From positions 393,667-449,157 of the forward strand of contig JAHNZQ020000092.1 in the NCBI GenBank assembly GCA_019155205.2: 55,491 nt of DNA, read 5' to 3'. The DNA is from Gracilaria vermiculophylla. Taxonomy: Eukaryota > Rhodophyta > Florideophyceae > Gracilariales > Gracilariaceae. Positions within the stretch are counted from its first letter, which is position 1. Each line of letters starts with the position of its first letter. This document shows, in pieces, positions 414 through 55,491 of this stretch. Position numbers and translations under genes: made by a program. The notes beneath the pieces are model-generated. The model made no database searches and was not told the origin of the DNA. It saw only the letters and a program-made list of their open reading frames with translations.

Positions 414-1833
414 GTGGCTCCTATCGATGGTAAGGCAAGCGCGGCCTCCGGCGATTGGCACATTCTCTCCTTCAGGCGTTCCTCCACCCATTCATACTCC
501 TGCGCGGCGTATTGCCGCGGGCTCGCGTTTCATCTTGCGCAGTGTTTGCGGACCCTGCTCCTCCTTGTCTCGGTTGCTTCTCCTCCCTACCAGCGTATCC
601 TGTCTGTGCAACCGCTCCAGTTGGCGGCGTGAGCTCCCGCACACTTGAGTTCGACGTGTGCGGTGCAGCCGCGCAACCTCCGTGGCCGGCGCGTGGGTCA
701 ATTCAGAGTGGACACTGACTCCCTTGAGGCGCTTGCCACTCCGATTCCTTCGAAGATTCTCCTTCGGAAAACACCCATTTCAAGGCTTCCGTTCATTCAT
801 TCCCCGTGAAGGTGCAAGTCTCATAATCCTCTCGTCTGCGTCCCTGTTGTCCTCCACTAGATATGAACGTACGCCTCGCTATGGTGCTCCTTACCTCGCC
901 TAATTCCGGTCGCCCGGCTTCTCCTCGAATTCCACAATGGCGGCTTGACGCGGCTACCTCCCCAGTCGGGCGTATAACGGCGGGCCGTTCCCCAAGTGGT
1001 GTCAGATCACTCTCCTTAGGTGTTACCACGCATTCGGTGGCTATTCATCCGGCTTCCTACACCTTCGGCATGTCTTCTCCAACTCCGGCGCCTACGTCTC
1101 CCTCGAATCTTGAGGTGTACCACACCTCGACCGGTGCACCGTTCCGTCCAGGGGATCATTTTGACAATTGCGCCACGCGGGTCTTCGTCCAAGGATATGA
1201 GCGCCTCTCCTGAGGTGATAGCTCCGCGGCCCGCAGCAATGCCGGGTGCTCCCGCAGTGGTAGCCGCCGTGTCACCTATGGATGAGGACGACATTGCTTC
1301 CGTCCCGGTACCTTCGGCCCCAGTGGTGCAATCCCGACTGCGGAGCGTCCCTGCGCCTGTTCGTCAGTCTCGCCTGAGGAGCGTTCCAATTCCCGCACCG
1401 CAGTCATCTCCGGTGTCGCCGACTCCGTCCTTGGCTTTGCCGACCTCCACTGCAAAACCTTCGGAACCCTGTCGAGGAGCCCCTGTCCCAGCTGGTCCGC
1501 CGTCCGCAGCTCCTTCCGGGGCAGTTGTTCTGCTGTCAACGAAGGTGGTCGCATCGGGTGCACCGTCGGGCTGAGTCTCCACTTGGACTCTGGAGGCTGC
1601 CTTCCAGGATTTTAGTGCAGGCGTGCCTGGTGACGGGTCGTCCTGCTCCGACTTCTCTTGTAGAGGTTCTGCTTGAGACGCGTGCTTGGGTCTTAGAGCC
1701 CCACAAGGCCCATGCAGACCGAGCCTCGATGGCGGCCATCAAGGAACACCTGTCAGAGTTCTTCGATAGCCAAGTGCTGACGGCAAAATTGCGCCTCGAA
1801 GCGGAGTATTCAACGCGATTCGGTGACCTGTAG
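414..1833 (+). pseudogene. Convergent accessory gene (aORF) of element A, internally deleted and frameshifted
   Basis: This gene lies between the two polypurine tracts of element A, on the strand opposite gag-pol. Conserved blocks are shared with element E (52018-54556) and element B (35452-34970). They are an upstream serine/leucine-rich block (414-632), an N-terminal block (863-1213) containing SPSGVRSL and YTFGMS..TP, a Pro/Ser/Ala-rich linker with repeated RLRSVP units (about 1230-1560), and a C-terminal helical block (about 1620-1833) ending in RFGDL. Compared with E about 1.1 kb is missing, the join falling near 1180-1195 where both E flanks carry CGTCC. The blocks are in three frames, so this copy is dead. 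No known domain is recognised and the function is unknown. It is not gag, which is present separately at 7200-9060. Confidence 0.65.
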
Positions 1834-1850
1834 GTGATAGAACCCTGGCG

Positions 1851-1856: not shown

Positions 1857-1953
1857 AGGTCCTTTGGATGGAGCAGAAGCTCCATAAACGGTAGTTCCAA
1901 TATGAACTAGGCAGTGACCGCGTTCTCAGACACACGAAGTGCCGGCGCGGGAG

Positions 1954-2507
1954 TGTGGTACTGTCAGCCCTCCTGTCGAGGTAGTAAAGCACAACGTCCG
2001 TTAGGAGTTTTTAGTGACTCCAAAGGCGCGTATTTCTAAAGGTGGTCTCCGATATCCGCTGTCGCGAGCCGGGGGAATTCTGAAAGGGATCCGCAAACAC
2101 CAAGCGGAGGGGAAGGTTCACTGGGCGGACAATGCTCCTACAGGCGCTGCTATGATGCGTCCTGGGGATCGGCGGCTTAGAAACCTGGGTGAATAGACAA
2201 GAGACTCCAACCGAAAAATGTAGAAGAAGACTCAAGGGTGCTTGTCTTTACTTCCCCAGAGGTGGAGCTCAACCGGCAGCTTCAATATCTAGCCGGGAGC
2301 CCGCCTCGGCAGGTCGCACTACTGTGCTAATTACCTGCATAAAATATCTAAAATAAATAAAAAATTCTACCGTGCCTTAAGGATACTGTAGCGCACGCGG
2401 GCCATATTATGCACCACGTGGCCCAGCTAATAAACTACGAACCCTCCTTAGGAATATTATGCCTTAAGGCCAAACCACCATATTTCCGTAGGAGCCACTG
2501 TACTACA
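1954..2507 (-). mobile_element. Solo LTR of the A family with TSD GGGAG
   Basis: This is a complete 554-bp LTR, TGTGGTACTG...CTGTACTACA read on the plus strand. It is flanked by GGGAG at 1949-1953 and 2508-2512. Element E has continuous sequence at the equivalent point (about 54660-54690), so this is an insertion into element A. LTR-LTR recombination is the usual origin of solo LTRs. Confidence 0.93.
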
Positions 2508-7578: not shown

Positions 7579-7938
7579 TCACAGCTTCAGTGAGAACTCC
7601 GTCTCGGTCATTCCGGTGTTCTGTCTATAGGAGGTCACTTCAGCATCAGCATCGGCTATGACCTCTTCCGTGGCGTACCTTTTAAGGAGGAAGTTGAATA
7701 CCTCCGGGTACTTCGTCAAGATTTCCTTTCCAGGATCATCCACAATGGTGCTCTCCCCCGTGAGGCGCGGCTGCACCAGCGAGTGGGCTTGGTCTGTGAG
7801 GTAGAACTGAAAGCACCATACGGAGGTACCTTCATGGACACCATTGGTATTACACGCTGAACGGAAGCGCGTAAGAAAATTCAACACCGAGAGGGGGTCT
7901 TCGCCTGAGAAGGAGTGCTTCTTCATTTGAATATCCAT
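7579..7938 (-). pseudogene. Gag capsid core, element A
   Basis: The segment MDIQMKKHSFSGEDPLSVLNF, then LTRFRSACN..GVHEG and WCFQFYLTDQAHSLVQPRL matches the Retrotrans_gag capsid pattern. It is conserved in D (48915-49493) and, more broken, in B (29385-29800). It forms the particle shell of the retrotransposon. It is separated by frameshift and stop from the N-terminal Gag block. Confidence 0.75.
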
Positions 7939-8000
7939 GCGGCGCTGGATCTTCGTGAGTCATTTAGCGACTGACGCGCTGTAAAGTGTGGAGCGACCAT

Positions 8001-34835: not shown

Positions 34836-34889
34836 CCACCGCTACTGAGAGCTCATACCCATCCCCAGGGGTCTATCACCTACAGGTCA

Positions 34890-35452
34890 CTGAATCGCGT
34901 TGAATACTTCGCTTCAAGGCGGGGTTTTTCCGTGAGCGCTTGGCTCTCCAAGAACTCCGACAGACTTTTCTAAGTGGCCGTCGTCGAGGCACGGTCCGCC
35001 CGGACCATGTGGAGTTCTAAGACCCAGCCACACGCCTCACGCAAAGCCTCTACAGGAGAAGCCGGAGCAGGACGGCCCGACACCAAGCACGCCTGCACCA
35101 CCTCCTGGAAGGCAGCTCCTAGAGCCCCAGAGGATACTCCGCCCGACGGTGCACCCGAAGCGGCCACTTCCGTTGATAGCTCAACAATCGCCACGTACAC
35201 CTCAAGATTTGATGGAGACCTTGGCCCCGGAGTTGGAGAAGACACGCCGAAGGTGTAGGAAGCCGGATGGATGGCGACCGAACGCGTGGTAGCACCTGAG
35301 AAGAGTGATCGGACCCCACTTGGGGAGCGGCCCGCGGTTATTCGCCCGACCGGAGAGGGAGCGGCGTCATGTGGCCATTGCGGAATTCGCGGAGAAGCCG
35401 GGCGACCGGAAGCAGGCGACGTATGAAGCTCCATAGCGGGGAGTACTTTCAT
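34890..35452 (-). pseudogene. Convergent aORF of element B, internally deleted
   Basis: The minus-strand frame 35452-34970 (about 160 codons) joins the N-terminal block (SPASGRPASPRIPQW, RSPSGVRSLFSGATT, PASYTFGVSSPTP..SNLEVY) directly to the C-terminal block (STEVAASGAPSGG, PVEALREACGWVLELH). About 1.5 kb present in E is missing, yet the frame is kept across the join. A TAG at 34970 stops it 31 codons before the usual RF.DL end. This is the most compact version and shows that the middle part is dispensable or lost easily. Confidence 0.65.
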
Positions 35453-51413: not shown

Positions 51414-51966
51414 TGTGGTACTGTCAGCCCTCCTCTCGAGGTAGTAGAGCACAACGTCCGTTAGGAGGTTTTGGTGACTCCAAAGGCGCGTATTCCTAAA
51501 GATGGTCTCCGGTATCCGCTGTCGCGAGCCGTGGGAATTCTGAAAGGATATCCGCAAACACCAAGCGGAGGGGGAGGTTCACTGGGCGGAAAATGCTCGT
51601 ACAGGCGCTTCTATGATGCGACCTGGGGACCGCCGGCTTAGAAACCTGCGTAGATAGACAAGAGACTCCAACCGGAAAAGTAGAAGAAGACTCAAGGGTG
51701 TTTCTCTCTACTTCCCCAGAGGTGGAACTCAACCGGCAGATTAAGTATCAAGCCGGGAGTCCACCTCGGCAGGTCTCACTACTGTACTAATTACCTGCCT
51801 AAATTAACTAAAAAAAATAATATTTCTACCGTTCTTCAAGGATACTGTAGCACACGCGGGCGAGATTATGCACCACGTGGCCTAGCTAATAAAATACGAG
51901 CCCTCCTTAGGAATATTACACCTTAAGGCCAAACCACCCTCTTTCCGTAGGAGCCACTGTAATACA
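51414..51966 (-). repeat. 3' LTR of element E
   Basis: It is 553 bp. On the plus strand it runs TGTGGTACTGTCAG...CACTGTAATACA and is close to the solo LTR at 1954-2507. Confidence 0.92.
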
Positions 51967-51968
51967 TA

Positions 51969-51979
51969 CCCCCTTTCCT
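51969..51979 (-). promoter_or_regulatory. Polypurine tract 2 of element E
   Basis: The minus strand reads AGGAAAGGGGGTA directly before the LTR start. Confidence 0.72.
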
Positions 51980-52017
51980 GACTTGCACCACGTCCACAAG
52001 GTGCATCTTCCGCTTTC

Positions 52018-52470
52018 TTGATCCCTGGGGTGGCTACTATCGGTGTTGCAGCACGTGCGGCCTCCGGCGGTTCAGCCGTTCTCTCCTTCAGGCGTTCTTT
52101 CTCTTCTCCATTCTTCCGCGCGGTGTGTTGCCGGGGGCTTGCGTTTCACTCCTTGCGGCGTTCGAAGGCTCTGCTTCTCCTTCACCCGGCCGCATCCGCT
52201 CCTTCTTGGTGTCACCCTCCGGTGCTGCTGCGCCAGTCGGCAGCGCGAGTGCCTGCATCCTTCAGCGCACCGCGCGCGGTGCAAGCGCACAACTTCCGTG
52301 GACGGAGCGTGGGTCAGCCCGGCGAGGATACCGACCCCCTGGAGGCGTTAGCCACTCTGACTCCTCCGAGGTTACTTCTTTTGGCAACACCCGCTTCTTC
52401 GCGTCCGCTCATCATATCTCCGTGAAGGCGCCGGATTCATGAGTTTCTCGTCCGCACCTCCGTCGTTCTC
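52018..52470 (+). other. Conserved upstream block of the element E aORF
   Basis: This segment is also present in element A (414-860). Frames here share LSFRRS, RGLAFH and (E)DTDxLEALAT with A. It could be an N-terminal part in a shifted frame, a leader exon, or the promoter and 5' untranslated region of the convergent gene. The sequence does not decide. Confidence 0.4.
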
Positions 52471-52472
52471 CA

Positions 52473-54556
52473 TTGGATATGAGCGCAAGCCCCGCGATGG
52501 TGCTCCAAAACTCGCCAGATGCCGGTCTCCCGGCTTCGCCTCGGATTCCACGATGGCGGCTCGACAGGGCTCCCTCGGCGGTTGTACATATAGCGTCTAA
52601 GCGATCCCCGAGCGGTGTCAGGTCTCTCTCCTCAGGTGCAACCACGCGTTCGGTCGCCCTTCACACTGCTTCGTACACCTTCGGAATGTCCTTTCCTACT
52701 CCGGCGCCGACATCCCCTTCCAATCCTGAGGTGTATCACACCACGACCGGAGCACCATTCCGCCCAGGAGAACACTTCGATCATCGCGCCACGCGGGTGT
52801 TCGTCCCGTTCCACGATATGCGCGTGAGTCTCCCGTGTCCCGTTAACCATTTCGGGCCGTACCTGCAGGCGATGCGATTCCGCGCCGTCCCGGAAATTGC
52901 GTGGACCGACCAGAAGTGGAACCGCGTCGATGCATACCGCGCCCATTGGCTTCACACTCCAGTACATGGTGACAATGCTCCAACCACGGTAGGACACTGC
53001 GACACGCTCTACCTGGGGTGCGCGGAAGATAGAGAGAGCCAGGCGCGCCTCCAGGTCCTGCTCCACAGGGAGAGTTCGCACCAGAGAGCGGGGCGATCCG
53101 GAAGCATCGCCGATGGACGCTCCGCGCTTGCGGTGCTACCCTTCGATCCCCCATACGACCGCCTGTACTGGCTCAATCGGAATCGATGGGGGACGCACCT
53201 CGCGGACGAAACTCGCGTACGCACTGCATTTGGGTACTTCTACGGGTGGCATAACACGGAATTCCATGATATGCCCTCCGGGTAACGTCCGAAGTACTAC
53301 CTGAAGTTGAACGACTCCTGGAGGGACCATTGGGATTCCCCGCATTTCTGCGTGGCGACTCCCATAACCTTCGCGTATCGTACCTCTGAGGTTCTGGATC
53401 CACATGACTCCTTAGGGCGGTTCGTCATGTTGGTCGCCTCGACGGAGTTTGCGGTCGGCACCCTGATGGCGTACCTTCAAGCGGCGGACGAAGGCGTAAC
53501 TTCCTATACCCAATGCCGCGACGGCCGCCTCTACTAGGACTCGTCGTATCAGCCGACCGCCGGGCGTTTGCTTCCCTTGTCGGCGTCCATCATACGGGTC
53601 CTGCGCTCCTTCGGCATCCAAAATCTGGTTAAGGGCACCGCATAGAGCGAGTCCGACGGGAGACACTGTTGGCTTACAACCTCCAGGTGGCGTGGCGTGA
53701 CACACCGGGTTTCCTCTGGTACGACTACGGCGAGGACAAGTTTCACCCCATTGTGAGGAGTCCGAATGGAGACGATGGTGGGCACGCATACCCTGCCTTT
53801 CCCCGTCTGTTGGCATCTCGGGTTCCTCAGGTGCCACGGCGTCGGGTACCCGACTACGACCCTTTGATGGAGACTCTGGCGTTTGATGCGCCCCGTCGGT
53901 TACCGGCTCCGTCCCAGGATATTGGCGCACCTCCTGAGGTGAAAACTCCGCGACCCGCCGCGGAGCCGAGTGCTCCCGCAGTGGTCGCCGCGGTGTCTCC
54001 AATGGAAGAGGATGAGATTACTCTCGTCCCGGTACGTTCGGCACCAGTGGTGCAACCCCGATTGTGGAGCGTCCCTGCGCCGAGTACTCAGCCTCGCCTG
54101 CGGAGCGTTCCAGATCCCTCACCACCGTCACCTCCGGCATCACCGACTCCGCCCTTGGCATTGCCGTCCTCCACTGCAGAACCCGCGAAATCCCGTCGGG
54201 GAGCTCCTGTCTCAGCTAGCCCGCCATCTGCAGCTCCCTCCGTGGTGGTTGTTGCGCCGTCAACGGAGGTGGCCGCATCGGGTGCGCCTTCGGGAGGAGT
54301 TACCTCTGGGGCTCTGGAGGCTGCCTTTCAGGAGTTGGTGCAGGTGTGCCTGGTGACAGGCCGTCCTGCTCCGGCTTCTCCTGTGGAGGCTCTGCGCGAG
54401 GCGTGTGCTTGGGTCTTAGAGCTCCATAAGGCCCGGACAGACCGAGCCTCGATGGCGTCCCTCAAGGAAAGCCTGTCGGAGTTCTTTGATAGCCAAGCGC
54501 TCACAGCGAAAGCGCGCCTCGAAGCGGAGTATTCATCGCGGTTCGGTGACCTGTAG
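52473..54556 (+). pseudogene. Convergent accessory gene (aORF) of element E, longest copy
   Basis: It is about 2.08 kb, opposite to pol. Part 1 (52473-53285) starts MDMSASPAMVLQ, then gives SPSGVRSLSSGATTRSV, PFRPGEHFDHRATRVFV, WTDQKWNRVDAYRAHWL and LAVLPFDPPYDRLYWLN. A TAA at 53283 interrupts and the same frame continues (53307-53537: HWDSPHFCVATPITFAYR). A shift near 53640 leads to 53669-54556: YNLQVAWRDTPGFLWYDYG, a Pro/Ser/Ala linker with repeated RLRSVP, and a helical C-terminus SLSEFFDSQALTAKARLEAE ending RFGDL. The first part is about 390 residues and aromatic-rich, so it looks globular. No known domain, zinc knuckle or membrane segment is recognised. It is not Gag, which the family encodes in sense. 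Breaks make this copy a pseudogene. Function unknown. Confidence 0.7.
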
Positions 54557-54573
54557 ATGATAGGACCCTGACC

Positions 54574-54579
54574 AATAAA
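54574..54579 (+). terminator. Polyadenylation signal of the element E aORF
   Basis: AATAAA lies 17 bases after the aORF stop, in a context conserved in A and B. Confidence 0.6.
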
Positions 54580-54768
54580 AGATCCTTCGGATGGAGCAGA
54601 AGCGCCACAAACGGTAGTCCAAACATGCATAGGCCGTGCCCGCAAGCTCAGCGACACAAAAAGCCACCGTAGGAGCATGCGAAAAAGCGAGCACAGCATC
54701 CTGGACGCGGAAAGGAAACCTCTAGGTGGGGGATAGACGGCGGAGGCGAAAAACACTCCGGTCGGGTG

Positions 54769-54784
54769 CCCCCTCCCCCTTTCT
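54769..54784 (-). promoter_or_regulatory. Polypurine tract 1 of element E
   Basis: The minus strand reads AAGAAAGGGGGAGGGGG, just after the pol stop and about 2.8 kb from the LTR. Confidence 0.58.
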
Positions 54785-54797
54785 TAAACGGAAGCGC

Positions 54798-55491
54798 CTA
54801 TGTGGAGAGGCGTTTCCGCACCAGATTGACGTGGTATCGCCTAAGGACGTTCTCCGGGATATGTTCCGGAGGTTCTTCCGTGTCGTCCTTCGAGGTGTAC
54901 CCACACCAGCGGACGCGGTACAGTACTCCTGCAGGGCTTTGCCGATGCGAGACGATATGGTCCACCGCGTAAAGGATGTCACCTTCAGGGGTCAGGATGG
55001 CATCTGGAGCCTCCAGGATTGGTTCACCGAGAGCGGTGACGCGGTTCCCAGTATCCCGTGGTGTTGTCGCGCCTGAGGTGGTCGAATGAGAAATCTCCGC
55101 GCGTTGTCCCTGAGGTGGGGTGACGGACATTCCTGGAATGCTGGGCGTTGGGACTTTCGTCACTCTATCACGGGAGACGACATCCCTAAGCCCATTCACC
55201 TCAATGGCGACAGTATCCCTGTAGGTGGCCAGGACTTTGAAGGGCCCTGAGGTGGTCGGCGCTAACTTGCGCGTGACGTCCGGCGGTTCCTCGGAGTTCT
55301 TCTTGGGTTTATCGAGGAACACCTCGTCGCCTCCCTTCAGGTGTGGACCTTCCATAACCTTTCGGTCGAAGTCCCGTTTGTATCTCCTCTGCGTGGCGGT
55401 GAGCCTCTCCTTCGCGAGGGAGAGTGCGCTCTCATATCGCCTTAGGATGGAGCGTTTGGCTTGTGCCGTTGTTGGCGTCTGTGGCCCATCC
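54798..55491 (-). CDS. Integrase C-terminus and chromodomain of element E (partial)
   Basis: An unbroken frame of about 185 codons from 55355, open further toward the window edge. It shows the integrase tail GDEVFLDKPKKNSEEPPDV, then RKLAPTTSGPFKVLATYRD. The linker is Pro/Thr-rich. The chromodomain reads AVDHIVSHRQSPAGVLYRVR, W.GYTSKDDTEEPPEHIPEN and LRRYHVNLVRKRLST. This is the best preserved chromodomain of the family here. The 5' part lies outside the window. Confidence 0.85.
   Translation of the reverse strand, partial: DGPQTPTTAQAKRSILRRYESALSLAKERLTATQRRYKRDFDRKVMEGPHLKGGDEVFLDKPKKNSEEPPDVTRKLAPTTSGPFKVLATYRDTVAIEVNGLRDVVSRDRVTKVPTPSIPGMSVTPPQGQRAEISHSTTSGATTPRDTGNRVTALGEPILEAPDAILTPEGDILYAVDHIVSHRQSPAGVLYRVRWCGYTSKDDTEEPPEHIPENVLRRYHVNLVRKRLST

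What the first reader, a model, noticed from the sequence alone, without database searches (positions are those of the whole stretch)
52018..54579. A long gene on the opposite strand, convergent to pol, inside a chromovirus family
Three A-family copies that reach this far (A, B, E) carry a homologous ORF between pol and the 3' LTR, on the strand opposite gag-pol, ending in a stop followed by a conserved AATAAA. In E it spans about 2.1 kb, with one in-frame stop and one frameshift. In the N-terminal block about 95 codons align between A, B and E without indels. It has no recognised domain: an aromatic-rich, possibly globular part, then a Pro/Ser/Ala linker with RLRSVP repeats and a terminal helix. 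Gag is present separately, in sense. Extra antisense ORFs between pol and the 3' LTR are known in some plant Tat-lineage elements; a separately polyadenylated one of this size with no known domain appears new. It may act as a silencing antagonist, a motif-binding protein or a structural protein, all inference.
Basis: partly seen in the sequence, partly recalled or inferred. Interest (0 to 1): 0.87.

Follow-up and report, generated by a model that had tools for sequence, protein, structure and literature searches.

The report
Backwards accessory gene in algal retrotransposon
A family of jumping genes in what is probably a red alga carries, read backwards near its end, an extra protein gene of unknown fold that natural selection kept working about as strictly as the element's own enzyme gene, so it probably helps the element; backwards genes in this place are already known in plants and in one fungal group.

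Summary
Between pol and the 3' LTR of a chromodomain-bearing Ty3/gypsy element (copy E) lies an antisense gene: ATG 52479, TAG 54554-54556, AATAAA 54574-54579. In E it is broken (three in-frame stops, a frameshift, four codons missing); an unbroken 696-codon copy exists elsewhere. At least 63 places carry it. Its frame has 2.55 internal stops per copy against 12.6-20.4 in the other five (33 copies). Its main domain (codons 81-450) has pairwise dN/dS of median 0.26, below 1 in 741 of 741 pairs, 0.15 against the most diverged copy. By one method, domain 0.28, whole gene 0.39, pol 0.41. Private variants look neutral, shared ones do not: decay after insertion, constraint while active. One relative outside the genome (31% identity over 79%) shows protein-level conservation. 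No Pfam, NCBIfam or convincing PDB relative; AlphaFold failed twice.

The host is probably a red alga. The protein family and probable host group look new. Most likely role, inferred: a nuclear regulatory or anti-silencing accessory protein.

The parts
52479..54556 (+). Antisense accessory gene of copy E, broken: three in-frame stops, one frameshift, four codons missing
   Evidence: selection
52719..53830 (+). Approximate extent of the conserved domain (codons 81-450 of the reference copy) in E
   Evidence: match to P0002 at 52764-53743
54574..54579 (+). AATAAA, possible end signal of the antisense mRNA; exact in 23 of 28 copies, in the least variable 30-base window of ten tried
51967..52478 (+). 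Leader between 3' LTR and ATG; possible promoter region, no clear extra constraint overall
   Evidence: shared-variant density 0.395
51414..51966 (-). 3' LTR of copy E (element sense is the minus strand)
   Evidence: repeats of this stretch elsewhere in the window
54798..55355 (-). 3' end of pol with chromodomain
   Evidence: PF00385 E = 1.8e-8
863..1834 (+). Remnant of the antisense gene in copy A, internally deleted
34879..35452 (-). Remnant of the antisense gene in copy B, internally deleted

Best explanation
Shown: a chromodomain-bearing Ty3/gypsy LTR retrotransposon family of a probable red alga carries a ~696-codon protein gene between pol and the 3' LTR, on the opposite strand and convergent to pol, kept by purifying selection while the elements were active and decaying about neutrally after insertion. 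Inferred: it is transcribed from a promoter in the leader or in the 3' LTR read backwards and ends near the AATAAA, about 220 bases short of the pol stop, so that its mRNA is antisense to the 3' untranslated part of the genomic RNA but not to pol. Inferred: the product acts in trans as a regulatory or anti-silencing accessory protein, with a folded N-terminal domain, a flexible linker with RLRSVP motifs that bind a partner, and a short helical end, most likely in the nucleus. The gene part is close to certain (about 0.97); the regulatory role is about 0.4. The figure below is for the whole statement.
For: Gene: 31 of 33 ATG; internal stops 2.55 against 12.58-20.39 per copy; ratio to expectation 1.06 for private and 0.61 for shared variants, domain 1.17 and 0.50; dN/dS median 0.259, all 741 pairs below 1, 0.147 against L034; other frames 1.09-1.51 except one; pol in 26 loci 0.58 shared, antisense domain in the same 26 loci 0.47; distant relative at 31%. 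End signal: 54570-54599 shared-variant density 0.133 against 0.411. Role: no enzyme, capsid or envelope family found; low-complexity linker with motifs, RSVP shared with P0002; analogy with antisense gene23 of Grande (nuclear) and HTLV antisense proteins (PMC7264820 and PMC11963269, passages); host has three Piwi-domain genes.
Against: No transcript, protein or localisation data. AATAAA by itself ranks only 19 of 233 hexamers, private variation in its window is high, 0.6, and the leader shows no strong conserved block. No fold, no DNA- or RNA-binding family. The pol-strand frame sharing the wobble position also has a low ratio, 0.37, though with 15.85 stops per copy in the domain. Leader pseudo-frames give 0.73-0.83, so the method's background is below 1. 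Nothing shows nuclear location.
Confidence: 0.42

Rival explanations
1. The protein is a structural or assembly factor: a second capsid-like, envelope-like or chaperone protein needed for particles, placed on the antisense strand so that it is made apart from gag-pol.
For: Selection as strict as pol's; aromatic-rich domain of about 370 residues; no gag domain confirmed by Pfam in the sense ORFs tried, so a structural role is not filled beyond doubt.
Against: No capsid or envelope family in Pfam; the one PDB hit of the profile, a phage capsid, is at E = 0.48 and lies in the linker and end, not the domain; best 19-residue hydropathy 1.49-1.68, no clear membrane anchor.
Confidence: 0.2
2. What matters is the antisense RNA: convergent transcription makes double-stranded RNA at the 3' end of the genomic RNA and limits or times transposition; the protein is secondary.
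For: Any antisense transcript here would be complementary to the genomic RNA (geometry); Piwi-domain genes present; PMC7264820 proposes such a role for plant elements (passages).
Against: Constraint is at the amino-acid level and third positions vary freely, which an RNA-only role does not predict.
Confidence: 0.07
3. The frame is a passenger: a captured host gene or a mirror of another coding frame, without use to the element.
For: Most copies are broken: 5 of 33 lack internal stops, 18 of 33 lack frame-breaking indels.
Against: Shared variants depleted in amino-acid changes while private ones are not; dN/dS falls with divergence; the other five frames hold 12.58-20.39 stops per copy.
Confidence: 0.02

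Closest known systems
Boty-like elements of Botrytis cinerea and Sclerotinia with antisense gene brtn (Zhao et al. 2011, not seen itself; seen as cited in PMC7264820 section 5, PMC4227169 passages, PMC8365987 passages)
   Same: Extra antisense gene between pol and 3' LTR; gag-pol with a chromodomain; product of unknown function
   Different: Fungal host; BRTN sequence not held here, so kinship of the proteins could not be tested
Retand lineage of plant Ty3/gypsy elements with antisense TRP28 proteins (PF04195) (PMC11963269, passages)
   Same: Long pol-3' LTR region with antisense ORFs found in nearly all families studied; proposed regulatory role
   Different: Described as non-chromovirus; TRP28 domain not found here in 14 of 14 sequences; plant hosts
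Maize Grande gene23 and rice RIRE2 antisense ORFs (PMC7264820, section 5 and passages)
   Same: Same place and strand; gene23 has its own upstream promoter and a nuclear product
   Different: Plant elements; no protein similarity could be tested
HTLV antisense proteins (as described in PMC11963269 and PMC7264820, passages)
   Same: Protein made from the antisense strand of a retroelement, antisense promoter in the 3' LTR
   Different: Retrovirus of primates; no family match between the proteins by Pfam
Tekay 5' aORF of plant chromoviruses (PMC11728184, passages)
   Same: Extra ORF of a chromovirus, Pro-rich and largely disordered, suggested to modulate silencing
   Different: Lies upstream of gag-pol; here it is downstream and antisense

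Membership tests
Antisense additional ORF between pol and 3' LTR (aORF-3R) | Lies between pol and the 3' LTR, antisense to gag-pol | tested here: met
Antisense additional ORF between pol and 3' LTR (aORF-3R) | Present in most copies, conserved about as well as other element proteins | tested here: met
   copies were found by searching for the gene, so copies lacking it would be missed; conservation as for pol in 26 of 30 loci, 0.394 whole gene against 0.411 pol
Retand antisense TRP28 protein | TRP28 domain PF04195 | tested here: not met
   0 of 14 sequences match at E up to 10
Retand antisense TRP28 protein | Non-chromovirus element | tested here: not met
   chromodomain at the pol end; no RT tree was made
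Boty brtn | Chromodomain element with antisense gene before the 3' LTR | tested here: met
Boty brtn | Protein homologous to BRTN | not testable with these tools
   BRTN sequence not held
Chromovirus (Ty3/gypsy) | Chromodomain at the end of integrase; RT, RNase H and integrase in that order | tested here: met
   PF00385 in E; PF00078, PF17917/PF17919 and PF00665 (the last below its cut-off) in A and B fragments
Chromovirus (Ty3/gypsy) | RT falls in the chromovirus clade | not tested
   no RT tree made
Env-like additional ORF | Sense orientation | tested here: not met
   antisense
Env-like additional ORF | Transmembrane segment | tested here: inconclusive
   best 19-residue hydropathy 1.49-1.68 in three sequences

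The most novel reading that the evidence does not exclude
A new protein family, so far only in this element family of a probable red alga and in one unplaced relative, encoded antisense by a chromodomain retrotransposon and acting as a dedicated antagonist of Argonaute-based silencing, in a host in which no cytosine DNA methylase was found.
Probability: 0.18. Interest if true: 0.82.

Novelty: new member of a known kind. Interest (0 to 1): 0.58.

Why it matters
In the reviews seen here, the function of antisense genes of LTR retrotransposons is unknown. This one shows selection about as strict as pol's, in a probable red alga, with a constrained block where its own mRNA could end and a distant relative that marks which parts matter. 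That makes it a good test case for what such genes do, and it widens their spread beyond plants and fungi.

Tried and rejected
Led nowhere: Pfam, NCBIfam and PDB sequence searches (only chance-level hits); alignment search of the protein database (nothing, not even P0002; only the 7992 candidates sharing most words were scored, and words from the low-complexity linker may have filled that list); search with the P0002 domain (only itself); viral and prokaryote contigs; two AlphaFold jobs, mean pLDDT 29 and 31, so no fold search was made; a bacterial-type promoter scan (nothing, and not suited to a eukaryote). No Fungal_trans, hydrophobin or elicitin match in the genome; none of the three rang in the controls, so these absences are weak.

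Considered and rejected: a fungal host (my own first guess), after phycobilisome linkers and light-harvesting proteins were found; a glaucophyte is not excluded. Mirror of a sense frame: rejected. Hypermutation at CpG as the cause of decay: not seen, the C-to-T rate is about equal in all contexts. The frameshift between residues 656 and 657 seen in most copies is a peculiarity of the query copy L026, not of E. My first count of stops (3.45 per copy) included the terminal stop codon; the recount without it is 2.55.

Full report
Observation. Copy E of the element runs on the minus strand and is cut by the window's end. Its 3' LTR is at 51414-51966 and its pol end, with a chromodomain, at 54801-55355. 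In E it holds three in-frame stops, one frameshift and a gap of four codons. Copies A and B hold only internally deleted remnants.

The family. A DNA search of the genome gave 43 matches from 40 scored places of 580 candidates, a protein search 65 matches from 63 scored places of 1327, so the number is a lower bound. Thirty loci came and nine short ones. One copy has an unbroken frame of 696 codons, and L026 one of 711 codons with a shifted end. In the register of the reference copy 5 of 33 copies have no internal stop and 18 of 33 have no frame-breaking indel.

It is a gene. The start codon is ATG in 31 of 33 copies and the terminal codon TAG in 30 of the 32 with letters there. Internal stops per copy: 2.55 in this frame, 12.58 to 20.39 in the other five (one search gave 3.45 with the terminal stop counted in). 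Variants found in one copy only are spread as expected without selection (ratio to expectation 1.06; domain 1.17), while variants shared by copies are depleted in amino-acid changes (0.61; domain 0.50; codons 451-697 0.82). By codon position in the domain, shared variants number 113, 75 and 206, private ones 164, 166 and 120. The integrase-chromodomain part of pol, in 26 of 30 loci, gives 1.03 private and 0.58 shared; the antisense gene in the same 26 gives 1.02 and 0.59, its domain 1.10 and 0.47. Pairwise dN/dS of the domain: median 0.259 over 741 pairs of 39 loci, all below 1, falling from 0.38 to 0.18 over the quartiles of dS, and 0.147 for the most diverged copy against 38 others; the linker (451-609) has 0.67, with 582 of 630 pairs below 1. 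Frame controls on 33 copies, domain: 0.276 in frame; 1.21 and 1.37 in the other frames of the strand; 1.09, 0.37 and 1.51 on the pol strand; pol itself 0.411 in 26 loci; whole antisense gene 0.394. The 0.37 belongs to the frame that shares the wobble position, and that frame holds 15.85 stops per copy in the domain. Pseudo-frames of the leader give 0.73-0.83, so a ratio somewhat below 1 is the background of this method. The pairs share ancestry and are not independent; no significance is claimed from their number.

A relative outside. Of a database of 5.77 billion proteins, of which the 7994 candidates sharing most words were scored, one matched: P0002 (769 aa, on a contig of 3849 bases, source 'lgn'), E = 2.2e-53, 31% identity over 79%. 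It shares the domain, an RSVP motif in the linker and a C-terminal segment. Its host, and whether it lies in an element, are unknown. Further searches found nothing more.

The mRNA end. AATAAA is exact in 23 of 28 copies and ranks 19 of 233 hexamers in the stretch up to the pol stop, so by itself it is only fairly conserved. But the 30 bases at 54570-54599 have shared-variant density 0.133, against 0.411 for the 241 bases of 54557-54797, the lowest of the ten windows tried there; private variants in it are dense, 0.6, as expected of a stretch that was constrained while active and free afterwards. This fits an end signal placed before pol; it is not proof. The leader shows no such drop (0.395; lowest 60-base window 0.283).

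The protein. Residues 1-80 are rich in Pro, Ser and Ala; 81-450 hold most of the aromatic residues and most of the match to P0002; 451-610 are again rich in Pro, Ser and Ala (51% in P0001), with RLRSVP at two places, exact in 21 of 38 and 24 of 36 copies; then follows a short conserved end. Pfam gave nothing above chance for 14 sequences, nor did NCBIfam for three or PDB. Both models are too poor to use. That the end is helical is my reading of the sequence, not a tool result.

The host. Eleven phycobilisome-linker matches at seven places, five of them on contigs of 1.9 to 6.0 Mb counted once each by gene or more, and ten light-harvesting matches point to a red alga (contig lengths); a glaucophyte is not excluded. 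Three Piwi-domain genes are present. No cytosine DNA methylase was found although that search rang in 10 of 14 controls; these controls are prokaryotes. C-to-T change is not raised at CpG.

What is known. [quoted passage not shown] other passages). Retand elements encode TRP28 proteins there (PMC11963269, passages). A Boty-like gag-pol with brtn has a CHROMO domain (PMC4227169, passages); brtn is also named in PMC8365987 (passages). Chromodomain Gypsy elements of Ectocarpus were looked at only in passages of PMC12477816, and the Tekay 5' aORF in passages of PMC11728184. So the arrangement is a known kind. Ten library searches listed no paper whose title or printed abstract start tells of an antisense gene in a red-algal element; most listed papers were not opened, and subscription journals are mostly missing.

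Mechanism. Selection on the amino-acid sequence, about as strict as on pol, means that the protein helped the element while it was active. Place and strand, lack of a clear membrane anchor, lack of known enzyme or capsid families, and the analogy with Grande gene23 (nuclear) and HTLV make a regulatory or anti-silencing role the best guess, at about 0.4. The chain of events (antisense promoter, short mRNA, nuclear protein, motif-bound partner) is inferred throughout.

Noticed in passing
window 1953-2507: An LTR-like stretch, 90% identical to E's 3' LTR, sits between A's pol end and A's remnant of the antisense gene, as if a solo LTR had inserted there or a deletion had joined two elements.
   Followed up: no
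window 7582-7959, -: A sense fragment of copy A looks like a Gag capsid domain by eye, but Pfam does not recognise it.
   Followed up: partly
L013 and L026, downstream of the antisense stop: Both have a different sequence after the antisense stop, without the AATAAA at the usual place, so there may be a subfamily with another end.
   Followed up: no
genome G000, C11:1366077, C17:1455037, C14:4339853: Three Piwi-domain genes in long open frames, while no cytosine DNA methylase was found by a six-frame search.
   Followed up: no
L013 4730-5563; L023 6-614: Second stretches of the antisense gene lie close to the first copy, pointing to nested or neighbouring elements.
   Followed up: no
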